This document shows positions 1-23,764 of a DNA stretch of 64,000 nucleotides, piece by piece; the first letter of the stretch is position 1; each line of letters opens with the position of its first letter. This stretch comes from Viridothelium virens (lineage: Eukaryota; Ascomycota; Dothideomycetes; Trypetheliales; Trypetheliaceae). A program made the translations under genes and the position numbers. Under the pieces are notes generated by a model. It searched no databases, had not been told where the DNA came from, and was given only the letters and a program-made list of their open reading frames with translations. The stretch covers positions 186,001 through 250,000 of the forward strand of contig ML991795.1 in assembly GCA_010094025.1 (NCBI GenBank), given 5' to 3'.

Positions 1-11
1 CTGAAACTCCA

Positions 12-3000
12 ATGAGTGCAAGTACTCTAGGTCACGAAATGAGTGATGAGTTGAAAACAAACCCCTCAGAGGTTGACACGAATCCTGATTTGGACCGTCA
101 ACAAATTTCTAGAGCCAATGCAAGCAAGCAAGAGGCCAGTTCAGTGGTAGTTAGCAGTGTAAATGGCGCTGGTGACGGAGTGCAGGGAGATCAGGCCCCG
201 CAGGTAGTGACCAAACACCGCGTGAAGCCGTCACTATCTGGACTCAATGTCGAAGCGAAAGAGTTCAGGTTCAATCCAAGCGCGTCCTTTCAACCTGGCA
301 ATTTCTCATTTTCTGGCGCAAACTTCCAGCCGCCGCCTACTGCGAAGCCGCCGCAGCCAAATTACAGCAGGCCCTTCCCTCAATCTCAACCTGAAAAGAG
401 CTCCTTCAACATTTCGGCCCCGGCTTTTAATCCGAAAGGATCCTTCGGAAGCGGTCCGTCGATTCAGAGCTTCAACTTCAGCGCACCAAGCTTCAAACCG
501 GGTGCTCCCGAATTCAAGCCTTCTGCTCCTATCGAAGAGCCAACAACATCTGGTGGAGAACAGCCTGTTGCGGACCGGATTTTTACCACCTTATCTACAG
601 CTTCGTCCGAGGATGTTGTCAAGCAGCCGAAGAAGAACAAGGCCGTTCAAATTGTCAACCCCAATCTACTGCCAAAACCTGCTACAGTCCGGGAGACGAT
701 GGCAGAAGATGAGTCCGGCCGCCTCGCGCGGGAAGACGATCGTCAAAAGAGAGCTCGAAAATACGATGACGATGGGGACGAAGTGCCGCAATTTGCATTT
801 CCCACACATGTTGAAGCAGACTTGGATGCTGCGACGATACACCCAGCACCAATTGTTCCCAGCAATGACCTCGTCGATAAATTTGAAGAAGTCTCCCTTG
901 GCGCCCACCGCATCCGGACGCCACCAGCAGCGGCTGCTCTTCATGACACGCCTACGCCTGTCCCTTCAAATGCCCCTACAATCGATGAGCTACGACGGAG
1001 GGCACTGGATTCAATACCGAAGCAAGAAGAGCAAGCCAATGTAGCCATTCAGCCGACTACAACAGATGATCCTCGCCAGATGTCGCCAGCGCAAGCCGCT
1101 CTGCATGCTGTCCTTGGTGGCAAGAGACACGGACACAAGAGTTCGCTCTCCGCTACTGCAAAGCCGTTCGAATTCAAGCCCTTAAGCAGCGATACCGATT
1201 TTCCAAGCTTCAGTGGCAGGACCAGTGAGATCATTGACAGTCAAAATGACAGCTCGCAAATCCTATCGAGCCCGACTCAGCCCTTGGACAGCAGCATTGC
1301 TACAACATTCCGCCCAAGCGACTCTTTCTTTGACCAAACCGCTTCTGATCCTAGCAAGCGGCAGCAACCAGGCCTTGCGCCTTACCCTACGTCCGACAAT
1401 GGCGTTAGTTACGATGACTTTGAGCAGCCCTCTCTGGCTGAGATTGACAACGTCATGAGGCAATTGAACGAGAATGACGATCTTGGTGTCGAAAAAGAAG
1501 AGCCACCATCATGGGAACCTCCGAGTCCTCCGTTCCAGGCCGATCAACCGCTGCTTCAGCCATGGAAAAACATGCGTAGCGATGCACCCAGTCCGAGTCC
1601 CAACCGTCCCCGTCCAACCGTTGAGACTGAAAACCTGGAGGATGAGACTGCAAGTCACGATCCGTTCAGCGATAGTCATGCGGCCGTCGTGGATCAATCT
1701 CCTGTCCGTCGTCTCAACAACGAGAGGGACGTTCCAATCAGTGACTGGGACGATGCCTTTTCATCGAGCGATGAGCAGAAACTGAAGGCACAAGTGCAAT
1801 CGCGCAGCATCTTCTTTGAGCCTCACGTAGAGAAGGTGGTCGCTAAGGCGTTTCAAACCAAGATGGATCCTATGATGACCGCATTGCTGCAGTTGCAGGA
1901 TTCTATGGCGACACTGACAGCGAAGAACACTGTCGAGCGACGGAGCATGTCCGCTAGTGTAGGAGCCGAGAGCGATGCAGACGACGAAGATGATGATGAG
2001 GTACAGAGACCACCTCGCTCGCGTTCAAGAGCGAAAGCTTTCCCAACTCCAGAACTCCTCAATCCAGACAAGATTAAGTCGGTCATGCTTGAGGCTCTTC
2101 AAACATACAATACTCCCCCGACCCCACCAGCGCCTGGCGTTAGTGAGTTCCATGAAGCACTAGTTAGCTTGAAGTCAGCGGTCGCCAGATCTGATGCTGA
2201 GAAGATGCAACTTGAGGACATCAGAGCTGTTATGGAAGAGACACTTCATAGGCGGGATTCTGCGTTGGTACCTCATGCTCGCGCGCAGATGCCATATCCT
2301 GAGGATGATGGTCAGGTCATGCAACTTGACAAAATGCTACAAGATGCGACTGTACGTGCTGCCGAGGCTGTCAATCATCGCAATGAGATTGAAGACCGCG
2401 CTGCTGAAACGAGGAAACTTCTCCGGCTCGCGGAAGAAGAGCTCAGTCTCTATAAAGAACTGGATAGTGACAAAGAACACTCGCTTCGGTCAGTCCGTGA
2501 TGAGCTATCAGATCTCAAGGAGCATCTTCATGACGTCCAAGAGCACCGCATTGCTGCGGAGAAGGAGCATCAGAGCTTGACTGCCAAAATATCGTCTCTG
2601 GAGGAAGAGCACACAGCGATGGAGTCCACGCTTGAAGAGTATCGCGAATCAAAGCGGGTATGGCGACAAGAGATTGATGATCTTATGAAGGAACGTGAGG
2701 CGCTCAAGTCGGATGTGGCCATACTGACGAGCCAAGTCAAGGAAGGGGTGGAGAAAAGGGATGATATGCGCGATAGACTTATCAGACTTCAAGAGGACAT
2801 GGCGAGATCGGCTGGGCAGATGGCAAGTGCAAAGGCACATTGGCACCAGCAGGATCTTGCGCACCAAACTCGAGCTGAGTTGCTTAGCGTTCGGATTGGC
2901 GACGAAGCAAGAACTCGTGAGCGGCTAGAGAAGGAGATTGAACGTCTCGAGACGCAGGAGAAGGAGCACATGAAGTTGAGAGTGCTAGTGGACCACACTC

Positions 3001-4829
3001 AGCAGGAGAACACGAGACTCGAAGACATGGTCACGACCGTTAAGAAGGAGCTCTTCGAGCAACAGCAGCTTGCGGCTCGATTTGAGCGTGAATTCAATGA
3101 TGCACGTGAGACGGCTCGAGTAGAGGTCCAACGCACGAGGACATCAATGGAAGCGGACATCGAAGCTGCCCACCAACAGGCCGACCTTGTCAGGGCCGAT
3201 CTCGAGGCAGATTTTACGAGCATGCGCAATAGGTGGGAGGGCGAAAATTCGAAGTTACGGACAGAGCTTGATAATATTAAGATGGACGCCGATACGGCAA
3301 AGGAGAAGCACGCCCTCCTGCTTGAAGAGGCAGCAGATGCCAAGCGTGATGCACTACAGGGGGCTCACGACTCACGATTGAATGCTATCAACGAATTGCA
3401 ACAATCTCACGAACGTCGCATTGCGGAACTTCAAGCCAATCACAGCCGCGTCATTGGCAACGCCAATGAAGACAAGGAGCGTTCTGAGAAGCTACTAAAC
3501 GAGCGGCTTGGTCTTGCAGATGCTAAGCTGGAGCACTATCAAGATAAAATAGTGCATCTCGAACAGAAGCTCGAAGTTGCCCAATCCGCTGCTCAAGCTG
3601 CCGTAAAGGCTGCCCAGTCCGCGAAGGCTGCTCCGCAGATCGCTCACGCTGCTGTCACGGCTGCACCAGCCGCAGCGGTCCCGACATCAACAGCCCCGGT
3701 CCCCGAAAAGGTCTCCCCACAAGCCCTTCGCGAGTCTATCATGGTTTTGCAGGAGCAGCTTCAGGAACGAGAGTCCCGTATTGAGCACCTCGAATCCGAG
3801 CTCAAAGCTACTGATACCGATGCCCCGACAAAACTGAAAGAACGTGAAACCGAGATCTCCTGGCTTCGAGAGCTCCTCGGCGTGCGCGTCGACGACCTCA
3901 GCGATCTCATCAACACCCTCAGCCAACCCGCCTACGATCCAGACACCGCCCGTGACGCCGCCATTCGCATCCGCACCAACCTCAAAATGGAGCAGCAAGA
4001 GAAAGAACGCCTCATCGCCGCCAACATCGCCCCGGGCCAACCCCTCCCCGTCACCCTCACCGGCCAGCAAGCCCTCGCCTCCATCTCCAACTTCGCCTCC
4101 CCAAAAGCCGCCCAGCTCGCCGCCGCCTTCGGTAACTGGCGCAAAGGCAACGGCAACAACACCAACCCCTCGCAGCTATCAACCAGCCGTCCAGGCACGA
4201 GCAACAGCAACAGCAGCACTCCGCTCCCAGCTACAGCTGCCGCCCGCCGCTCCTCCGCCACACCTCTCCGCCGCCCGGGCTCCAATGCCAGCACCGGCAA
4301 CGCCCAGCCTGGCTGGATGTCTGGCCTCATGACGCCGCCGACGTCGAACCTGCGGAAGACGCCGACGCCGACGCCGAGCGTCAGGACGTCGCCGGAGAAG
4401 CCGCGCACGCCGCAAAGGCAGATGGCGGGTGCGCTGGGGGGCGCGAGGAGGTCGACGTCTTCATTGTCACGGTCTCCGCAGACGGGTCGGCGGCAGCAAC
4501 ACCAGCAGCTTACGGCGCGGCAGTTGGGGAAGCAAAGGGTTTATGCTGATCTTGATGGTGATGTTGAGGCTGGTGAGGACGATGGGTATGATGGGGTTGG
4601 GGGGGAGATGGCGGGGTTGCGTCATCCGGTCACGCCGCCGTTGATGCGGAAGGCGAGCTATGATAATGATGCTGAAGATGGGGAGTACAGTACTGCGGGG
4701 TTCGAAGGGTTCGACGATGATGAGGAAGGGGAGGGGGAGCATGTCGACGGGGTTGCAGAAATGGGAGAGCGGATTAGCCCGGAGCCGCCGCGGCTGAAGC
4801 TCGATTTTGGGGCGCCGATTGGTGATTGA
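12..4829 (+). CDS. Large coiled-coil protein with N-terminal PAM2-like motif array (possibly 5'-partial)
   Basis: Single uninterrupted frame of 1605 codons. The frame stays open upstream of this ATG to the window edge, so the true start may lie outside. Residues 1-760 look disordered (Ser/Pro/Asp-rich). Residues about 765-1210 are a long heptad-rich coiled coil full of E, K, R, Q and L. The last 300 residues are Ser/Thr/Pro-rich with an acidic tail. Residues 78-87 read LNVEAKEFRF, close to the PAM2 motif that docks on the MLLE domain of poly(A)-binding protein; degenerate copies follow (98-107, 132-141, 154-163, 161-170) and one stands at 379-390. Fungal homologues are often labelled 'myosin class II heavy chain', but no motor domain is present. 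A scaffold that binds RNA-protein complexes is inferred, not shown. Coding sequence is C-rich around 3870-4310 and G-rich after that. Confidence 0.9.
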   Translation: MSASTLGHEMSDELKTNPSEVDTNPDLDRQQISRANASKQEASSVVVSSVNGAGDGVQGDQAPQVVTKHRVKPSLSGLNVEAKEFRFNPSASFQPGNFSFSGANFQPPPTAKPPQPNYSRPFPQSQPEKSSFNISAPAFNPKGSFGSGPSIQSFNFSAPSFKPGAPEFKPSAPIEEPTTSGGEQPVADRIFTTLSTASSEDVVKQPKKNKAVQIVNPNLLPKPATVRETMAEDESGRLAREDDRQKRARKYDDDGDEVPQFAFPTHVEADLDAATIHPAPIVPSNDLVDKFEEVSLGAHRIRTPPAAAALHDTPTPVPSNAPTIDELRRRALDSIPKQEEQANVAIQPTTTDDPRQMSPAQAALHAVLGGKRHGHKSSLSATAKPFEFKPLSSDTDFPSFSGRTSEIIDSQNDSSQILSSPTQPLDSSIATTFRPSDSFFDQTASDPSKRQQPGLAPYPTSDNGVSYDDFEQPSLAEIDNVMRQLNENDDLGVEKEEPPSWEPPSPPFQADQPLLQPWKNMRSDAPSPSPNRPRPTVETENLEDETASHDPFSDSHAAVVDQSPVRRLNNERDVPISDWDDAFSSSDEQKLKAQVQSRSIFFEPHVEKVVAKAFQTKMDPMMTALLQLQDSMATLTAKNTVERRSMSASVGAESDADDEDDDEVQRPPRSRSRAKAFPTPELLNPDKIKSVMLEALQTYNTPPTPPAPGVSEFHEALVSLKSAVARSDAEKMQLEDIRAVMEETLHRRDSALVPHARAQMPYPEDDGQVMQLDKMLQDATVRAAEAVNHRNEIEDRAAETRKLLRLAEEELSLYKELDSDKEHSLRSVRDELSDLKEHLHDVQEHRIAAEKEHQSLTAKISSLEEEHTAMESTLEEYRESKRVWRQEIDDLMKEREALKSDVAILTSQVKEGVEKRDDMRDRLIRLQEDMARSAGQMASAKAHWHQQDLAHQTRAELLSVRIGDEARTRERLEKEIERLETQEKEHMKLRVLVDHTQQENTRLEDMVTTVKKELFEQQQLAARFEREFNDARETARVEVQRTRTSMEADIEAAHQQADLVRADLEADFTSMRNRWEGENSKLRTELDNIKMDADTAKEKHALLLEEAADAKRDALQGAHDSRLNAINELQQSHERRIAELQANHSRVIGNANEDKERSEKLLNERLGLADAKLEHYQDKIVHLEQKLEVAQSAAQAAVKAAQSAKAAPQIAHAAVTAAPAAAVPTSTAPVPEKVSPQALRESIMVLQEQLQERESRIEHLESELKATDTDAPTKLKERETEISWLRELLGVRVDDLSDLINTLSQPAYDPDTARDAAIRIRTNLKMEQQEKERLIAANIAPGQPLPVTLTGQQALASISNFASPKAAQLAAAFGNWRKGNGNNTNPSQLSTSRPGTSNSNSSTPLPATAAARRSSATPLRRPGSNASTGNAQPGWMSGLMTPPTSNLRKTPTPTPSVRTSPEKPRTPQRQMAGALGGARRSTSSLSRSPQTGRRQQHQQLTARQLGKQRVYADLDGDVEAGEDDGYDGVGGEMAGLRHPVTPPLMRKASYDNDAEDGEYSTAGFEGFDDDEEGEGEHVDGVAEMGERISPEPPRLKLDFGAPIGD
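243..521 (+). other. PAM2-like motif array within the coiled-coil protein gene
   Basis: Encodes residues 78-170. Five segments fit the loose pattern [L/F]-x-x-x-A/G-x-x-F-x-[P/F]: LNVEAKEFRF, FSFSGANFQP, FNISAPAFNP, FNFSAPSFKP and FKPGAPEFKP (the last two overlap). The first is nearest the canonical PAM2 core (L-N-x-x-A-x-x-F-x-P), with F where the final P is usual and NP just after. A sixth copy, LSATAKPFEFKP, lies at 1146-1181. FG/FxF-type low complexity is an alternative reading. Confidence 0.55.
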
Positions 4830-5720: not shown

Positions 5721-8700
5721 TCACCCCGGAACCACAACCCCAAACCCGCCTCCCACCTCCTCTAGAAGCGCCCCCAATTCCGCCAACACTTCATCGTCCG
5801 CGCCTCCCGGCACTCTCCCCGCAACCGCCAACGCCTTCACTACCAATGGATACAGCACGAGTAGATGCCTCTTTGTCGCCTTGATCCCAGCTCCACCTCC
5901 GCCCGCACTTGTCCCACCTCCCCCAACAGCAGAGTCTGGTATCGCATCTGGATCAGACTCCAGGGCCTTCATCGCCCGCAACACGAAGAGCAGCTCCTGC
6001 CGCTGAGGTTCTGGCTGCGGCATGCGGCCACGGAGGGGTTGGTCGGCGATGTAGGCCTTAAGGGGGAGGGCGGCGCGGGCGAGGAGGTGGGGCGCTGCTG
6101 CTTGAGCGAGGGTAGCGTGCTTTGGTTCTGAGGGTGCTACGCCGTTCGCGGAAATGGGAGAGGTGATAGAGGGACCGGCTCGGACGAGGTCGAGGAGGAA
6201 ATTGAGGCAGAGGTAGGACAGTTTGCGGCGAGGAGAGGGCGCGGGGTCGGAGGTACGGCCGAAGCGAATTTGGTAGATGGTTTTCAGTGGCGAAGAAGTG
6301 GGAGGGATTTCTTCGGGTTCTGGGGCGTGGATGATAGAGTTATGGAAGAGGACTGATGTGTAGGAGGTTCGAATGGAGTTCGGCACAGTTGGAGCACCGA
6401 GATAAGATATGATGAGGTCGTGGAGTGCTGTGAACGATTCGATGTCGAATTCAACGTCCTTTTGCACCTTCTTGCGGGAAGATACGTAGGACAAGTCTGC
6501 GTGAGCAATACTACTTGCGATACGTGTAGCATGCGACAAGATCTCGTGCAAGCTTTCGTTGGTGCTCGAATACCTCGCCTTTGGTAGGATAGTCTGAAGG
6601 ACATGAAGAGCCGTTGATGTTGCCAGCTGCCAAGGAGGAGGCGGCTTGTTGCCTTCCAGTCGCCACTTGTACTTTAACTCAATTGGCTGAGTGAGACTAT
6701 CGAGGACACAATTGAGGGTATCATCTGTATAGATCTCCTGTTCACTAGAGTGTTGATGGACAAAGACCCCCAAGCTACGCATCGCCGCTTTCGAGAGGGC
6801 GACAAACGTGAGGGTCGTTTGGTAAACGTCATCTTTCTCCTTGTCAAAAGCCATACTAGCTAATGTGGCCATGAACTCCAGAATAATGGAAGGGGCACCT
6901 GCAATATCTGTCCGAAGCTGTTCCACGATATCCAAGACTTCTTTTTGTAAAGGTGTTAGGTAGTCGGCATCCACAGAATATAATAATGCATCTGATTCGC
7001 GGACACATTGCTCCAAGTTGTCAGCGATGGTATTGACTTGGTTTGATGTCACCTCCCTCTGCGTGAGCCGGTACAATTCCTTCAAAGTACTGATATACGC
7101 CAGAAAAGCCTCCTGCTTTCCTTCAGCATTATCCGCCGGACCACCTTCAGGTATTTTGTTAGCCCAAATGCTACCAACCCTATTCAAGGCAGGTTTTCCA
7201 AGGATTGAGGTTTCTTCCGCTTTGGACATGATGGTTGACAGAGTTCGAAAGACAGATGCGTTAAGTAGGTGGGACTGGAAGCTCAAATAGAACTCAAGAT
7301 AAGCCATGAGAGTTTGCCAATGGGTAGAGAAGTCTGCAGTTTGCGTGATGGGATCTAGAAATGTGGAAAAAATGCTGGCAATACCACCCAGGATGATGTC
7401 GCTACTTCCGTCCCAAACTCCGTCTGATGCCTCCTTGGAGCGAGCCCGGCGCTGGGCTTCAATGTTTGTATCCACGAGTCTGAATAAAACCGAAGCAATG
7501 AGAAGAGACCAAGCCGGAGCAGATAGAAGCTCCCCATAACGATCAAAAATAGTAAGTATTGTACGCACTGCCGTATTCCGCACCTCGGCTCTATCGTCAT
7601 TGGCGATGGTCGTCAGGTGGCGGAGAAGCGACAGCCAAACGGCTGACACTCTTGCTTGAGCAGACTCTTTTATCACAACTGTAGGAGATTGGTTCTCGGC
7701 ACTGACTGCACTTTGCAAAGTCTCTAACTCTGATAATACAACTTGCTTTTGTAGAAATTCTGAAACGTCTTGGAAGATAGAAATTGTCTGTGGGATTCGT
7801 TAGCCATGGTCTTCAATTTGCTAACCACTTGAAATCGAACGTACCGTTAAAGACATGTTAAGGTCGTTGAACTGCAAAGCAAACAACAAAAGGGTATCAC
7901 TTAAAACTGACAAGAATCGGGGGGGAAGGGAAAGCCGGCATTCCGAATAGACAATCTGCGCCGAGGAGAATGCTAACCGTCCAAGTTTTCCAGATACTAG
8001 CCGAACCATACTCGGTCGATGAGAATTAGCATGAAATTGTGTGTCGTTCAGGTTGGTGTCATTAGTACGCTCGAAAACGCTCGATATGATCTTGAAGACA
8101 GAGTCCCACCCATCAAGAAGAGACTCCCCACACGCGTCCAGTACATCTTTCAATGTTTCGAGGATTGTCTCATGGACGTAATAGTCGTTCTCTTTCATAT
8201 GTCGACCGTCTTCAATCAGGGCATCAAGCTCTGATTGTAACGTGGAAAGGACCCTTCGTTGAATTTCGCGTCGCGTTGTCGCATCTTCCTTTCTTGTGGC
8301 ATCCGCCGAGGCGAACAGACGCTCCCGAAGGACATCAGCGGCCAAGCTGCGGACAGAATGGACAGCCGTCATTGAAGTTGAAATCTTGATTAATTCCGAG
8401 GTCAAAAATTCCCAGCCGCTCTCTTCTGGCTCATGCGCAGCCAGTCGCAAATGATTGGCACGGGCAATTTCACGAATCTTTGTTAACGCCAATGTGTACT
8501 CCTGGGATTGTATATTGACTGAAGCAGGTAAATTTGAAACGCTTCCCACTCTCCTAGGTGGCAGTGGAATAGGTTTCTGAAATTCCTCGGCAGCAGGGGA
8601 AGTGGGTTGTGAAGCGATATGTTTTCCAAAGAACACTCCGAAGGATGCCTTCAACACCTGCACAAATGCGTCATCGGGATAATCGCTAGTATTGTCGAAC

Positions 8701-11066
8701 ATTCTCGAAGCAGCAGCTTGAACAGCTTTGATCTCGGTATTAAGATTAGAAGCAGACGAAGGGTCGATTTCATTCTTGGCACCCAGTTGTGGACTCGATC
8801 GGTAGTCTCCCAGAGCAGGTTTGGCACTAAAGGCAGCAAGAACTATATCCGCACTTTGAAGAGTCTCAAGAACAATGCTCCACGCAATGTCAAGCGTTGG
8901 CCCCAACGCGATCGCAAGATTAATCAAGGCGCGTAAGCACAATAGGTTCCGCGTTGTTAAATTCGGGGATTCAGCTTCAATTGAGACTGATTGTCGTCTT
9001 TTGTTCTCCATTGAGAGACTCGAGGCCTGGCTAACAAAGCTATCGACACTGAGCAGACCTTTTGCATTGGTGAACACCCTGGGTGCATCCCCGTTCGCAG
9101 TTACTGCTGTCGAGACGATAGCACTTGTCAAATTTGGTGGAACAGCAGCTTTTCCCAATGTAGTCAAGAAAGCGTCTCTTGGTGTCGACAGACGCAAGAC
9201 TCCTGCGGCCTGTGTAAACTTCTGAACCGAGCGTACTAAAGCATGATAATATTCCGCATCGAGGGCAGCGTACAAGAAAGTCGAGCAAGTAGCAAGGACC
9301 GCAGGCCAGCATTCTTCGATAATCGATGCAGCGATTTTGACCATAGAATATGACGAGCTCGCAGTCAGTTCGAGTGGATTGACGGGAACTGAGCGCTTGC
9401 GATAGGACATAGATCTTGTCAGTATTGGCCTTGTTTGAGGCTCTGTGGATCTGGTCTCTGGATCAGGAGAAAGAGGCGAGTCTTCTGCATCACCCGTCGG
9501 CTTTGGTTTTTTTCTCCTCCTTTCCTTGCTGACTTGATGGATACTCAGTGGCAAGACACACTTTGCCAGGCCATCTGCCACGCTATTTAGGCATGTTAAA
9601 ACAAGGCTATAGACGTAAGTTTCGGGCACGGCAGGCGCTTCCATCTTGTCTAGCTGGTCCAAGCAAGGTGTCTTCAACGAGCTTAGCTGTACGGAAATGC
9701 CCGGGACGTTAACTTCAGCGACACCAAGCCCGCCAGATCCGATCACGCCAGCAACACCAGCTTCAACAGCAGCTTGGTCAATTGAGTTCTCACCATCTGT
9801 GCCTGATTGCCCAAGCGGTGCTGTAGATTGTTGGCCAAGTCCAATCTTAGCAGGCTTTTCTGTTGCGAGTCGTACGAAAGCCGCAAAATTATCTTTGAGA
9901 ATGGGCTTCCGATCCTCGACAGCATCGTATTCCGCGTATAGTTGCAAGAACAATCTTGGATCTGTATATACAGAGCGGAATACTTCCATGCAGAGATTGC
10001 GCTTCCAGGAAGGAACTACATCTCCATCGAGCATGTGGTTGAGCAAGCTCAGAGGAATTTCGCATTCCGTGGATAATTCCGAGACATACTTCCGCAGTAC
10101 GACAGACAGAATTCGGAATATACGAAGGGTTACCGTGAAAGTTAGCCTCTCAGAAAGGCAGCGCGTAATCATCGGCAAAATTCGCAAGCGCAGGATTGCC
10201 TTTTGTTCCTCGTGCGTAGAGAAGATGGGAGAATGAGAGGTCAGTATTGACTCAATTATTTCCAAGCAAGAAGCCTGCGGCAGTGCCGAGAAATGGACAA
10301 ATTGTGGCTTTTGTCCTTCCGCTAGGAGGCAAAGGTCGTCGAAGCTCTAATAGAGTCATGAATATGTTGGGGATAGACTCGGTCAGCAAACGCACCTTGT
10401 AAGCATCGCGAGAAGCTGCACGAACTGCAACGGCGCCCTCTTCGGTGGACACTTCGTCTATGAAGGGTCCATCTGGATCGGCAGCTAATTTTGTCAACAT
10501 GACAAGCATACTCCAGGTCTCTTCTAATGCCTACCGTCTTCCTTTGCTACCTTCTCGTAAACTGCGGTGAACAATTGCTGTAGAGTTGCCGCAGCTGTGT
10601 TGCTCACGGCCGCACTCTTTACAGTCTGAAGTATCGAGCATACCTGCAAGGCGCTTGCCAGAAGGTCCCCTTCGAGTTCATCTGCGTAACTCTGTAACAA
10701 GGGCGGCAGAGCTTGTAGGATCTTCAGTTGCACATCTAGTCCCAATAAAGCGGACTCTTTGAAAGCCTCAAGAACCTCTTCAAAGCGATCCTTTGGCAGT
10801 CCATGAGAAGCAATAAGACGTTGCAAGCAGCTGACACCAATTCCGGCCAGGCGAGAATTGCGCGTTCCACACGCCAATAGGAAAGGAGAAATGAAATGAG
10901 ATTTCCGAACCAAATCTGCAGCTAATTGCTGTTCTGAAGTCGACGGAAGAGCTTTCAAGTCTTGCAAAGATTTGTCCGCAGCATTTCTCAATTCCGTATT
11001 CTTTCTTTTAGATTCGGAAATGAGGTTGTTTAATTCATTGCTAAGGATTTGAGATGTCATCTCCAA
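5721..11066 (-). CDS. MON2: MON2 homologue, Golgi/endosome trafficking scaffold
   Basis: Exons (minus): 11066-10535, 10484-10396, 10346-7845, 7787-5721, giving 1729 aa; introns are 50, 49 and 57 bp with GT-AG ends, and every join keeps frame. The N-terminus starts MEMTSQILSNELNNLISESK and continues with the DCB-type helical repeats of the Mon2/BIG/GBF family; the whole protein is alpha-helical (HEAT/ARM-like) and has no Sec7 domain. In yeast, Mon2 acts at the trans-Golgi/endosome with Dop1 and the flippase Neo1, and binds Arl1. ATG at 11060 (MTSQ) is an alternative start. The extreme C-terminus is Gly/Val-rich and the coding strand turns G-rich in the last 250 bp. It shares a 475-bp upstream region with MMS2. 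Confidence 0.93.
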
Positions 11067-18142: not shown

Positions 18143-19913
18143 TCATAGATCCCTTGTCCTCTCCTCGCTCTCCCCAATCCACTGCTCTAACGCGCCCAAA
18201 TCCCTCACCTTCGCCCTCACGCGAAACCTCTTCGGGTCCATCGTCAGCGACGTCGGAATCGCATTCGCCTCGATGCAATCCAGCACAGGCCGCTGAGTCG
18301 GGTCGCCGCTTTCGCTGAGCTCGAACGCAACGATGAGACGCAGGAATGCGGTGTAGAGCTCGCGGTTGGCGAGGTGCGACCCGGCGCACATGCGAGAGCC
18401 TGCGCCGTAGCCGTAATGCGGAGTCCCTGTGAGGGAAGGCAGCGAGGAGGAGGTGTCGGAGAGGTAGCGGGTTGGGTCGAAGGTCGTAGGGGATTTGAAG
18501 TGGGTGGGGTCGTAGTCTGCGGCGTAGGCATTCTAAGAGGCGGTGGGGCGTTAGAGATTGCATTTCGGGTTTCTGACGTAATTGTGGTAAGGGAAGCGTG
18601 GGAATGGGGGAGGCTTACCATGTAGAAGGTTGTCCCGGCGGGGATCACTGCGCCGTCGTATTTGATGTCCTTGACGCTGACGCGAGGAAGGCAGATGGGG
18701 ATGACGGTCCAGTAGCGGAGGGTCTCTTTGACTAGGGCGGTGATGTAGGTGACTTTTTCTTCCACGAGACATTTCTCCCAGGCATCGCCGTCGGGATAGA
18801 CTTTCAGGATTTCTTCGTAAGCGCGCTTCTGAATCTCTTGGCCTTCGGGTGAGGCAAGGAAGCCGACGGTCATGATGATATTCCCGGGAACAGTATCCAG
18901 GCCAGCGGAAACCATGGTCAAACCTATGGATTTGATCTCGGCTGTGGCGAGGTCAGACACTTATTCTGGTCGACAGGTCCCATGCGAGAGGATCATACCT
19001 TCATTTAGCTTAGCCTCGGGATCTTTCAGGATATTTCCTGTGATGCACGGCTTGTCTGTCCCATTGGCGATTCTCTCCTTGAGCATGTCTAGTAGCTTCG
19101 TCATGTAAATATCTCTTCTCGCGCGGTATTCCTTGGCTTCCGTGCTGCTGCTAGGCCACAACCTCATCAGGGGAATGTAGTCCTGCCAGTTATTGCTCGT
19201 GCTCCTGAAATTGCTAATCACCCTCTCTACCCAAGTGATTTCCTTGAGCATCTCATCTTCGATCGTCCCTTCGATACGGAATCCATAATTCAGAGTTAGG
19301 CTCGTGTTAAGCGCAAACCTCTGGAAGTAGCCATTGACATCGATCTCCTTTTTCCCTTCGTCCGAATTTTTCAGCATCTCCTTGATGCTGACGGTAGATT
19401 CGAGGTCGATGATTGGCATATAGGATTGCACGGCTGGACGATTCAGTGCAGTAGCTGCGGCTTTACGCCGTTGCTTACATGACTCATCCCATGGTGAAGT
19501 GCCAATTGTGAAACCCTGGGAGCTGGACACGACTGAATGAAAAGTGTGAAGTGTCGGGCGAGATATAAGTGCGGACTGATTGTTGATCCAGAGTTGCTTC
19601 ACTGAATCAAAAGAGTTGGCAAATACGATCCTCTGTTGACTGGGTTAGACCCGAGTGACCAACATAAACGCTACAGAAGTCACCAAATGCATACCCTGTT
19701 ACCCAATCTCGCCTGAAAAACAGGGCCATGTTTCTCTGCCCATTTCCGGGCAACCACAGCATGCTTATTTCCTAATTCGAAGAGGCTTCCGAAGACCGGA
19801 TATCCAGGAACCTCAGGTAAACCTTTGATTTTAGGGACATCCGTACGGCTAAGAAATCGAATAAGTAAATATATTACAGCAATGGCGGCGAAGCTGTAAA
19901 CTTGAGTTGACAT
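18143..19913 (-). CDS. phacA: Cytochrome P450, phenylacetate 2-hydroxylase type (CYP504A)
   Basis: Exons (minus): 19913-19695, 19632-18999, 18941-18619, 18532-18143; introns 62, 57 and 86 bp; 521 aa. An N-terminal membrane anchor (FAAIAVIYLLIRF) precedes the Pro-rich hinge. The I-helix reads SAGLDTVPGN, the K-helix KETLR, and the haem loop YGAGSRMCAG with the axial cysteine at residue 441. Segments such as SALISRPTLHTFH and QGFTIGTSPWDESCKQRRKA match, as I remember it, Aspergillus PhacA, which ortho-hydroxylates phenylacetate so that the ring can go on to homogentisate. The neighbours are fumarylacetoacetase and homogentisate dioxygenase, the later steps of the route, which supports the call. 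The related CYP504B (3-hydroxyphenylacetate 6-hydroxylase) is the main alternative. Confidence 0.9.
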
Positions 19914-20412: not shown

Positions 20413-21723
20413 CTATCCAATATGGGGCTGAAGATTGATAGCCGCTTCAATTGTCCCAACACATTCTCCAAATCCCACTAGGCTGTCCTCATTATTTCCG
20501 CAAACACCTTTGATAGTAACAGTGTCCCCATCTTCAAGGAATGTCCGCTCTTCGCCACCTTCTAGCCTAATCGGATCTTTACCATTCCATGTCTGTTCAA
20601 TTAAAGCTCCTCGCTCAGTGGGCTCCAATCCGCTGATTGTGCCGGAGCCCAGAAGGTCTCCCACGTTCATCGGACAGCCAGTAATGGAATGGTGAGCCAG
20701 CATTTGGGGGAAAGAAAATAGCAAGTTCTTCGAGGAAGTTGTTGCAATTGTTGTGGTCTTTCCCGATTCGGGAGTTAGATTGACTTGGAGCCTAATATCG
20801 TACATATTCTCTTTCCTCTTCTCTCGTAGATACGGGAGAAGCTCCGTTTCCTGCGATAACCCCTTAGTCATGAAGGGCTCCAATGCATCAACCAGCACTA
20901 TCCAAGGCGATATTGTTGTACCGAAATTTTTCGCATTGAATGGACCTAGTGGCACATATTCCCATGCCTGGATATCTCTTGCCGACCAATCATTCATCAG
21001 AACTACACCAAAAATGTTTTCTTCTGCTGCACTTATCGTGATGGGTTCACCCAACTTGTTTGGTTTGCACACTAAAGCCCCAAGCTCTAGTTCGATATCG
21101 AGCTTCTTGCAAGGGGAGAAAATGGGCTGCTTAGGCGTCGCTACTGGATTTTCAAGAATTTGCCCTTGGGGACGGCGTATCCGTGTACCCGAAACAACGA
21201 CAGAAGAAGCCCGGCCATGGTATCCTACTGGAAGATGATTGTAGTTTGGCTGTAATGCATTGTCTTTCCCTCTGAACATAGACCCAACGTTGAATGCGTG
21301 ATTCCTCCCAGCATAGAAGTCTGTATAGTCTCCAATGTGCATCGGTAGATGTGTTTTGACCTCCTTGAGCGGAATTAGTACTTCTCTTTGAAGCGAAGTA
21401 TTGGATTTGAGTATTTCCGAATGAGGGGTGTTCTCGGAGAAGACGCTTTGTATGTACTTGCGCACGACGCTGTGTATAGGACGGCCAAGGGCAGCGAAGG
21501 CGTTTAGTGTAGTCTGAGAGAAGACTGTCTGATGAGGCTGGATGATTGAGCACGCGGAGAATCCATTTTTTGCAGTGAATGCTTCAAGATCCAGTGCGTA
21601 GTCGCCAATCGCTACCGCAGGCCGGGGCTTTGGCGAAGCATCTGTCGAGATGATGCCAAAGGGTATGTTAGCAAGGGAGAAGTGAGACCCCCTAGGGATC
21701 GATAGCCATGATCTCAGAGACAT
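20413..21723 (-). CDS. fahA: Fumarylacetoacetase
   Basis: Single exon, 436 aa, starting MSLRSWLSIP at 21723; the frame is open further upstream (to 21774), but this start matches the family length. It has the N-terminal SH3-like FAH domain and the C-terminal catalytic FAH domain. Recognisable active-site blocks are HIGDYTDFYAGRNHAFNVGS, PVGYHGRASSVVVSGT, KLDIELELGALV and VVLMNDWSARDIQAWEYVPL, which hold the metal-binding Asp/Glu residues, and the late PMNVGDLLGSGTISG. The enzyme splits fumarylacetoacetate into fumarate and acetoacetate, the final step of Tyr/Phe/phenylacetate breakdown. It is divergent from hmgA, sharing a 551-bp upstream region, as expected for co-induced genes. Confidence 0.97.
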   Translation of the reverse strand: MSLRSWLSIPRGSHFSLANIPFGIISTDASPKPRPAVAIGDYALDLEAFTAKNGFSACSIIQPHQTVFSQTTLNAFAALGRPIHSVVRKYIQSVFSENTPHSEILKSNTSLQREVLIPLKEVKTHLPMHIGDYTDFYAGRNHAFNVGSMFRGKDNALQPNYNHLPVGYHGRASSVVVSGTRIRRPQGQILENPVATPKQPIFSPCKKLDIELELGALVCKPNKLGEPITISAAEENIFGVVLMNDWSARDIQAWEYVPLGPFNAKNFGTTISPWIVLVDALEPFMTKGLSQETELLPYLREKRKENMYDIRLQVNLTPESGKTTTIATTSSKNLLFSFPQMLAHHSITGCPMNVGDLLGSGTISGLEPTERGALIEQTWNGKDPIRLEGGEERTFLEDGDTVTIKGVCGNNEDSLVGFGECVGTIEAAINLQPHIG

Positions 21724-22274
21724 TCTTGATCGTGCTTCCGGAGAGCTTCGGGTCTGCTTTGAGACAATTCCCAATGAAGATTGTTCGTCATGTCGGAGGT
21801 CGCGAGGGCTTCCTCTGTTTGACGAATCTCCAGGTGGAAGGAAAGGCCAGGGTCAGAATGGATGCACAATGCACTTTAACGTCACTGTTTGAAAAGGTGG
21901 TGGAATTAGTTCCGCGGACGGAGCCTCATAACTCTTCATAGGATTCCGCGCCTTTTCCATGCTTCTCCGCATTTGTGCTACATGTTCCGCCAATACCCGT
22001 GACAAAGTCGTCGTACTATGCATTTTTGGAGCTATTACAGCGTGCTTGGTATACACCTTGTCAATTCTCGGCCTTCAGCTCAAATTAAAACCGGAGCAAT
22101 GGAAACGGAGGACAGGCACTTCGCCAGAGCAAAACATTCTCGGAAGGAAACACAACACCTATATGTGTGAAATCTAAAAAGGACTGTATTAAAGGAAGTC
22201 TATCTCGAGGAAGACATCGTCGACTCAAAGAATCGTCAACGCCGTAGATATTAGTAAAGACGACTGGACAAAGT
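21724..22274. promoter_or_regulatory. Divergent promoter of fahA and hmgA
   Basis: 551 bp between the two starts; the only region that can co-regulate both genes of homogentisate breakdown. Short open frames inside show no family match. No regulator gene is adjacent and no binding site can be assigned by eye. Confidence 0.55.
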
Positions 22275-23764
22275 ATGCCTACGACAAACTTCTCTACAGC
22301 AGAAAAGTATCGCTACCAGAATGGCTTCAATTCTTACCATGAGTAAGTTGGCAGCTTCGGACACTTTGATATGATCGCTATGTCTTATCATTCCGTAGGA
22401 CTGAAGCTGTTGAAGGAGCTCTTCCAATAGCTGCAAACTCGCCTCAGAAGCCATCATATGGACTCTACAATGAGAAGCTCTCTGGGACAGCCTTCACAGC
22501 ACCACGTAGCGAGAACCAGCAGACATGGCTGTATAGGATCCTTCCAGCATCCGCTCATGCCTCATTTGAGCCAAGGGAATCCGCTACCTACAACACCAAT
22601 CCAGAAAGCAAGCCTCATGAGAAGCTGCACCACATTCCCAACCAGCTACGATGGGATCCCTTCGACCTCGACGAGACAGTGGATTGGGTACATTCATTGC
22701 ATTTGGTAGCAGGAGCAGGTGATCCTACTATGAAGCACGGAATTGGTATGTTCATCTTTGCAGCTGGAAAGGACATGGACCCCCACGAAGCTTTCTATTC
22801 TGCCGATGGAGACTTCCTCATCGTCCTTCAACATGGTGTACTCGACATTCAAACCGAGCTTGGGAAACTTCTTGTGAGACCCAATGAGATCTGCGTCATT
22901 CCAAGAGGTATCAGATATCGAGTTGCTCTTCCCCAAGGTCCTGTCCGTGGCTATATTCTTGAGCTCTACCAGAATCACTTTACACTCCCGGAGCTTGGTC
23001 CTATTGGATCCAACTGTCTCGCGAATGCGCGAGATTTCCAGGTACCCATTGCTTCCTTCGACGAAGACACCGACACTCCCTGGACCCTTCTCTCCAAATT
23101 CTCCGGACATCTCTTCGCCGCCAAACAGAACCACACTCCCTTCGACGTTGTTGCTTGGCACGGAAATTACTATCCATACAAATATGACCTCGCACGCTTT
23201 AGCACTATCGGTAGCGTCTCCTTCGACCACCCAGATCCCAGCATCTACACTGTTCTTACTGCGCAGTCCGACCACGCTGGCACCGCTGTAGCCGATTTCG
23301 TCATTTTTCCACCACGATGGCTCGTTCAAGAAGACACGTTCCGTCCGCCGTGGTATCACCGGAACACTATGTCTGAGTTCATGGGGCTCATTCACGGTCA
23401 GTACGATGCCAAAACCGGAGGCGGATTTCAACCTGCTGGCGCTAGTCTCCACAATGTGATGAGTGCACACGGTCCGGACGCGACAACACATGAAAAGGCA
23501 TCCAATGCTGAGCTAACGCCTGTGAAGGTTGGGGAAGGGAGCATGGCGTTCATGTTTGAGAGTTGTCTAATGGTAGGTGTGACGGAATGGGGGTTAAAGA
23601 AGTGCAAGAAGGTGCAGGAGGACTACAATGCCGAGAGCTGGGAACCTTTAAGGCCGCATTTCAAGTTGCCGGAAGGAAAGAAAATCAAGAACGATTTACC
23701 GGACGTGAAGGGGACAAACGGGACTGTTGGTGATAAGAGGCAAGTGCCACACTGGACAAGTTAA
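22275..23764 (+). CDS. hmgA: Homogentisate 1,2-dioxygenase
   Basis: Exons 22275-22342 and 22399-23764; intron 56 bp; 477 aa. The start [20 protein letters not shown] joins in phase to [20 protein letters not shown], the conserved N-terminus. The cupin core includes [18 protein letters not shown] and [16 protein letters not shown]. Iron ligands are visible: His343 and Glu349 in [11 protein letters not shown] and His380 in SAHGPD, equivalent to human His335, Glu341 and His371. The enzyme opens the homogentisate ring to maleylacetoacetate. The C-terminus is somewhat longer than in the human enzyme and Lys/Gly-rich. Maleylacetoacetate isomerase, which often sits in this cluster, is absent here. 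Confidence 0.97.

What the first reader, a model, noticed from the sequence alone, without database searches (positions are those of the whole stretch)
243..1181. Array of PAM2-like motifs on a long coiled-coil protein: candidate mRNA-transport scaffold in an ascomycete
The N-terminal 170 residues hold one good PAM2-like motif (LNVEAKEFRF) and about four degenerate copies, with another at residues 379-390, ahead of a coiled coil of some 440 residues. PAM2 motifs dock on the MLLE domain of poly(A)-binding protein. In Ustilago maydis, Upa2 combines several PAM2 motifs with a long coiled coil and carries mRNPs on endosomes; no such scaffold is well established in filamentous ascomycetes as far as I know. 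Proteins of this kind are commonly mislabelled as myosin heavy chains.
Basis: partly seen in the sequence, partly recalled or inferred. Interest (0 to 1): 0.75.

Follow-up and report, generated by a model that had tools for sequence, protein, structure and literature searches.

The report
PAM2-motif coiled-coil protein, probably PxdA
A filamentous fungus gene encodes a long coiled-coil protein carrying several docking motifs for the protein that coats mRNA tails; it looks like the known endosome tether PxdA, and the motifs suggest that this tether may also carry mRNA along hyphae.

Summary
One open frame (window 3-4829, +, 1608 aa, running off the left edge) carries five matches to the PAM2 signature, at residues 79-173 and 380-391. 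Scored by a published PAM2 definition, four windows meet at least 5 of 7 features; shuffles average 0.08 (0 of 5000 reach four). Pfam's PAM2 model finds M1 and M2 just below its cut-off (18.7 and 17.4 against 20 bits, short segments). A 444-residue proline-free coil (767-1210), a linker, a second coil (about 1239-1341) and a tail follow.

The protein is most likely the orthologue of Aspergillus PxdA, the early-endosome tether for peroxisome hitchhiking. The order of parts agrees, and a March 2026 preprint says in one sentence that PxdA's N-terminal disordered region has PAM2L motifs. No PxdA sequence could be obtained, so orthology is inferred. It fails Upa2's GWW test. The motifs have PAM2 spacing (FxP), not PAM2L (FxxP), so Pab1 is the predicted partner.

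An mRNA-scaffold role is plausible, untested and already hinted at in print. Ascomycetes are reported to lack Upa2 and Rrm4, yet Sordaria moves Pab1 with GUL1, most likely on endosomes; this protein could fill that gap.

The parts
3..4829 (+). Coding frame of the coiled-coil protein, 1608 aa visible, 5' end off the window; probable PxdA orthologue
   Evidence: Pfam names no domain above its cut-off
237..272 (+). PAM2 motif M1, SGLNVEAKEFRF: 6 of 7 published features, F instead of P at position 12
   Evidence: (segment 222-320, Pfam PAM2 E=0.0013, 18.7 bits)
297..332 (+). Degenerate copy M6, GNFSFSGANFQP: lacks the required Ala at position 7, not counted as PAM2
   Evidence: no Pfam match for the segment 282-359
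399..434 (+). PAM2 motif M2, SSFNISAPAFNP: 5 of 7 features
   Evidence: (segment 378-455, E=0.0034, 17.4 bits)
465..500 (+). PAM2 motif M3, QSFNFSAPSFKP: 5 of 7 features
   Evidence: (segment 453-545, E=0.22, 11.7 bits, two stretches)
486..521 (+). PAM2 motif M4, PSFKPGAPEFKP: 6 of 7 features, overlaps M3
   Evidence: same Pfam segment as M3
1140..1175 (+). Weak PAM2-like motif M5, SSLSATAKPFEF: 4 of 7 features
   Evidence: no Pfam match for the segment 1119-1199
2301..3632 (+). Coil 1: proline-free stretch, residues 767-1210; helices 769-820, 825-938, 946-1206 in the model
3633..3716 (+). Ala/Pro-rich linker between the coils
   Evidence: low confidence, no secondary structure
3717..4025 (+). 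Coil 2-3, residues 1239-1341
   Evidence: heptad signal; helices
3834..3911 (+). Candidate for the 26-residue stretch conserved in PxdA CC3 (LKERETEISWLRELLGVRVDDLSDLI, residues 1278-1303); assignment inferred from position only
   Evidence: (offsets) against coordinates in PMC9882315
4026..4826 (+). C-terminal tail, rich in Pro and Gly, probably disordered; no GWW, a single GW at residue 1437

Best explanation
The gene encodes the Pezizomycotina-specific endosomal tether PxdA (inferred). In A. [quoted passage not shown] I infer the same here. The long N-terminal arm carries an array of canonical PAM2 motifs, which most likely dock on the MLLE domain of Pab1 (inferred from sequence; not shown). 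Several weak sites on a self-associating coil (self-association inferred) would give avidity for poly(A)-bound Pab1, so the same tether that moves peroxisomes could also hold mRNPs on moving endosomes. Likelihood by step: PAM2 motifs real about 0.9; PxdA orthologue about 0.75; Pab1 binding about 0.65; a role in mRNA transport about 0.4.
For: PAM2 array beyond chance. Pfam PAM2 near-threshold matches at M1 and M2, none in five locally shuffled copies of the same 399 residues. M2 and M3 share 8 of 12 residues, yet 5 of those 8 use different codons, so this is not recent DNA duplication or slippage. Order of parts agrees with PxdA as published: N-terminal arm without Pfam domains, coil 1, break, coil 2-3, tail; coil start to C-terminus is 841 residues here and 770 in A. 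nidulans. [quoted passage not shown] PxdA was found in all 15 Pezizomycotina and no other clade among 33 fungal species (PMC9882315, passages); the window looks Pezizomycotina. Pab1 shuttles with GUL1 in Sordaria although Upa2 and Rrm4 are reported missing in ascomycetes (PMC7550108, passages).
Against: No PxdA sequence was available, so orthology rests on order of parts and motif type, which other coiled-coil proteins could share. The neighbouring gene Mon2 is AFUA_4G12070 in A. fumigatus, whereas PxdA is Afu1g11450, so the two are not neighbours there. From the candidate conserved stretch to the C-terminus it is 305 residues here and 178 in PxdA. The preprint calls the motifs PAM2L, but here strict PAM2L-like cores are not above chance ([DE]F..P: 2 observed, 500 of 5000 shuffles reach 2; F.[YF]P: 1 observed, 521 of 5000 reach 1). 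Whole-protein Pfam PAM2 is weak (E=1.2, 9.5 bits). M1 and M5 lack the final Pro; M5 has no Pfam match. One window in the Mon2 frame also meets 5 of 7 features. In U. maydis, mutating the PAM2 of Upa1, or all four of Upa2, left Pab1 shuttling or mRNA transport intact, so even real motifs may be dispensable.
Confidence: 0.7

Rival explanations
1. An ascomycete coiled-coil protein other than PxdA, with PAM2 motifs, that scaffolds Pab1-mRNPs: a convergent or diverged counterpart of Upa2.
For: Multiple PAM2 motifs plus long coil; the locus is next to Mon2, unlike PxdA in A. fumigatus.
Against: Upa2's C-terminal GWW is absent. Upa2 is reported missing in ascomycetes. PxdA explains the same anatomy with a known protein.
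Confidence: 0.2
2. PxdA, but the FxP-rich arm is a low-complexity spacer or binds something else; the PAM2 resemblance is incidental.
For: The arm has nine FxP sites; Pfam scores stay under the cut-off; there are no binding data.
Against: Local shuffles that keep the composition of each 40-residue block do not give the array. A at 7 and F at 10 recur with N at 4 in M1, M2 and M3. M2/M3 codons differ while residues agree.
Confidence: 0.25
3. The motifs are docking sites for translation or mRNA-decay control (as in ataxin-2, eRF3, PAN3) rather than for transport on endosomes.
For: The motifs are of the PAM2 type used by those proteins.
Against: No LSm, GTPase, kinase or RNA-binding domain is found by Pfam in the visible 1608 aa; the coil-plus-arm build suits a scaffold (inference).
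Confidence: 0.1

Closest known systems
PxdA (A. nidulans AN1156; A. fumigatus Afu1g11450)
   Same: N-terminal arm without Pfam domains, CC1 then CC2-3, C-terminal tail; PAM2-type motifs in the arm; Pezizomycotina.
Upa2 (Ustilago maydis)
   Same: Several PAM2 motifs plus a dimerising scaffold build; scaffold for endosomal mRNPs (passages). That Upa2 has a long coil is taken from the finding and recall.
   Different: No GWW motif; reported absent from ascomycetes.
Upa1 (Ustilago maydis)
   Same: Carries a PAM2 motif for Pab1 and acts on endosomes.
   Different: No FYVE, ankyrin or RING domain in the visible part; no PAM2L above chance.
eRF3 overlapping PAM2-N/PAM2-C
   Same: Two PAM2 motifs overlap in sequence, as M3 and M4 do.
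   Different: Overlap register differs: the shared Phe sits at position 3 of M4, but at position 1 of eRF3 PAM2-C.

Membership tests
PAM2 motif (PF07145; definition of Kozlov and Gehring 2010) | A at position 7 and F at 10, with L/P/F at 3, N/S at 4, P/V/T at 5, E at 9, P at 12 | tested here: met
   Four windows meet at least 5 of 7, none meets all 7; 0 of 5000 shuffles give four such windows
PAM2 motif (PF07145; definition of Kozlov and Gehring 2010) | Pfam gathering score 20 bits | tested here: inconclusive
   18.7 (M1), 17.4 (M2), 11.7 (M3/M4), none for M5 and M6 as short segments, 15.8 for the 399-residue arm; 9.5 for the whole protein. All under the cut-off
PxdA | Coil region in parts CC1 and CC2-3 after a long N-terminal arm without Pfam domains | tested here: met
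   against PMC9882315
PxdA | Conserved 26-residue stretch in CC3 (2033-2058) | tested here: inconclusive
   A candidate lies at a comparable offset (511 against 567 from coil start), but its letters are not in the text seen
PxdA | PAM2L motifs in the N-terminal disordered region | tested here: inconclusive
   PAM2-type array present; strict PAM2L-like cores not above chance
PxdA | Reciprocal best BLAST hit to AN1156 | not testable with these tools
   No fungal proteome held; scans of held collections found no relative
PxdA | Early-endosome localisation and peroxisome hitchhiking | not testable with these tools
   Needs microscopy
Upa2 | C-terminal GWW motif needed for endosomal binding | tested here: not met
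   No WW in 1608 aa; one GW at 1437; definition in PMC9249222
Upa2 | Four PAM2 motifs | tested here: met
   Four windows with at least 5 of 7 features
Upa2 | Dimerisation | not testable with these tools
   Only a long predicted coil
Upa1 | FYVE, ankyrin and RING domains | tested here: not met
   Pfam finds none in the visible part

The most novel reading that the evidence does not exclude
PxdA is the Pezizomycotina stand-in for Upa2: one endosomal tether that both drags peroxisomes and, through an array of canonical PAM2 (not PAM2L) motifs, binds Pab1 directly and carries poly(A) mRNPs, explaining how ascomycetes move Pab1 on endosomes without Rrm4 and Upa2.
Probability: 0.35. Interest if true: 0.75.

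Novelty: new member of a known kind. Interest (0 to 1): 0.5.

Why it matters
Long-distance mRNA transport on endosomes is worked out in the smut U. maydis, where Rrm4, Upa1 and Upa2 act, but ascomycetes are reported to lack Rrm4 and Upa2 while Sordaria still moves Pab1, most likely on endosomes. A PAM2 array on what is probably the known ascomycete endosome tether gives a concrete candidate link and a simple test. It could also help explain why pxdA loss disturbs light-responsive development and sterigmatocystin production while loss of the peroxisomal partner AcbdA does not, an observation of PMC12991151 (passages). The distinction PAM2 versus PAM2L predicts the partner: Pab1.

Tried and rejected
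Orthologues were sought and not found: whole protein in viral contigs (12 stretches matched a pattern, none confirmed) and genome contigs (32, none), C-terminal segment in genome contigs (227, none) and viral contigs (35, none), N-terminal segment in viral contigs (8, none), plasmids by tblastn (no match). None of these collections is meant to hold fungal genomes, so absence says nothing. No own genome is held.

PDB sequence searches with motif segments gave nothing for M1 and, for M2-M4, two CD276 chains (E=0.0069 and 0.0076 for the whole sequence, but 31 and 33 per stretch) and a Pol II CTD repeat (E=3.7), which I take as low-complexity matches. A second organism check, on the MAK21 homologue, gave only 8e5t_5 and a Noc3 homologue and did not help.

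Rejected: Upa2 membership (GWW absent), Upa1 membership (no FYVE, ankyrin or RING), true PAM2L motifs (not above chance). Synteny with Mon2 does not support PxdA; a search for papers naming the neighbours of PxdA found one paper, used for the Mon2 locus name.

The AlphaFold model of residues 747-1348 (one sequence only, mean pLDDT 69.1, pTM 0.25) was used for helix limits only; no fold search was made. Papers not held: Jankowski 2019, Muller 2019, Salogiannis 2016 and 2021, and a recalled DOI for the journal version of the Woronin-body preprint. Statements on Upa2 and PxdA therefore come from passages in other papers; no paper was read whole.

Full report
What is there. Window 3-4829 (+) is one uninterrupted frame of 1608 aa that runs off the left edge. 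It converges on Mon2 (5721-10346, -). Pfam finds no domain above its cut-off. The visible protein has these parts: an N-terminal arm of 766 residues, mostly proline-rich; coil 1 (proline-free 767-1210); a linker; coil 2-3 to about 1341; and a tail of about 265 residues. Heptad periodicity exceeds the 95% level of shuffles in most coil windows, but not in the three windows covering 1009-1176; two windows just before the coil and one in the tail also pass the 95% level. The AlphaFold model (residues 747-1348, single sequence, mean pLDDT 69.1) gives helices 769-820, 825-938 and 946-1206, then 1239-1269 and shorter ones to 1341, with an unstructured linker.

The motifs. The published refined PAM2 definition is a hydrophobic residue (usually L, occasionally P or F) at 3, N or S at 4, P/V/T at 5, invariant A at 7, E preferred at 9, invariant F at 10, usually P at 12 (PMC2854688, passages). 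Of ten windows in the protein with A at 7 and F at 10, two meet 6 of 7 features (M1 and M4), two meet 5 (M2 and M3), two meet 4 (M5, and PLDSSIATTFRP at residue 427) and four meet 3 or 2; shuffles average 0.08 windows with at least 5. Residue and dipeptide shuffles, and local shuffles that keep the composition of each 40-residue block, agree. Pfam's PAM2 model matches M1 at E=0.0013 and M2 at E=0.0034 when short segments are given, under its cut-off; choosing the segments makes these E-values optimistic, and the first 399 residues give E=0.011, the whole protein E=1.2. None of five local shuffles of those 399 residues gave a PAM2 match, and none of 20 of the 26 other frames of at least 220 aa did, at E up to 1.

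Is it just FxF low complexity? Two facts speak against it. Local shuffling destroys the array. And M2 and M3, alike at 8 of 12 residues, use different codons at 5 of those 8, so the likeness is not from recent slippage or duplication; selection on the peptide is the simplest reading, though an old duplication is not excluded. The stronger test, conservation across orthologues, could not be run.

PAM2 or PAM2L. In U. maydis, Pab1 MLLE binds PAM2 (FxP) and Rrm4 MLLE3 binds PAM2L (acidic run, FxxP, extra Tyr) with strict specificity (PMC9249222, passages). All four good motifs here have FxP or FxF and no acidic run. [DE]F..P occurs twice, which 500 of 5000 shuffles reach. Pab1 is therefore the predicted partner, and Rrm4 is in any case reported missing in ascomycetes (PMC7550108, passages).

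Identity. Searching the literature for endosomes, Pab1 and Aspergillus led to PxdA. A. nidulans PxdA has 2236 aa: N-terminus 1-1465, coils 1466-2115, conserved stretch 2033-2058; homologues were found in 15 of 15 Pezizomycotina and in no other clade among 33 fungal species (PMC9882315, passages). An earlier review names orthologues in Magnaporthe and Neurospora and none in U. maydis (PMC5176036, passages). The protein here has the same order of parts; from coil start to C-terminus it is 841 residues against 770, and a 26-residue candidate for the conserved stretch lies 511 residues after the coil start against 567, but 305 residues before the end against 178. [quoted passage not shown] maydis (PMC12991151, passages). 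A joint search for PxdA and PAM2 counted 3 papers and listed 2, one of them this preprint; the other is a review of mRNA transport of which I saw only the listing. So the idea is in print as one sentence; in the passages I saw there was no experiment on it and no motif list. The identity remains an inference: no PxdA letters were available, and Mon2 and PxdA lie apart in A. fumigatus going by their locus names AFUA_4G12070 and Afu1g11450.

Organism. A mitochondrial uS11 homologue in the window matches 6yw5_KK (6.6e-48) far better than the next chains, 8ux4_q (5.9e-25) and 5mrc_KK (8.9e-25). That 6yw5 is Neurospora and 5mrc yeast is recalled. This fits Pezizomycotina.

Mechanism. A. [quoted passage not shown] I infer the same for this protein. 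The arm offers several weak PAM2 sites; on a self-associating coil these would capture Pab1 on poly(A) tails by avidity (inferred). Redundancy is likely: in U. maydis, loss of the Upa1 PAM2 or of all four Upa2 PAM2 motifs left Pab1 shuttling or mRNA transport intact.

Verdict. What is added here: the motif inventory with controls, the assignment to PAM2 rather than PAM2L, the likely PxdA identity, and a direct test for how ascomycetes without Upa2 move Pab1.

Noticed in passing
window 5721-10346, -: Mon2 homologue (Sec7/BIG1-like HUS and HDS, Mon2_C) in two frames separated at about 7800-7820, perhaps by an intron; it converges on the coiled-coil gene.
   Followed up: partly
window 20413-23764: Fumarylacetoacetase (-) and homogentisate 1,2-dioxygenase (+) side by side and divergent: looks like a piece of a tyrosine-breakdown gene cluster.
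   Followed up: no
window 18244-19644, -: Cytochrome P450 split over two adjacent stop-bounded frames; intron or broken gene, not decided.
   Followed up: no
window 465-521: M4 overlaps M3, recalling the two overlapping PAM2 motifs of eRF3, but in a different register.
   Followed up: partly
window 792-803 and 1419-1430: Two FxxP sites near acidic residues (FAFP at residue 264, FEQP at 473) faintly resemble PAM2L; not above chance.
   Followed up: partly
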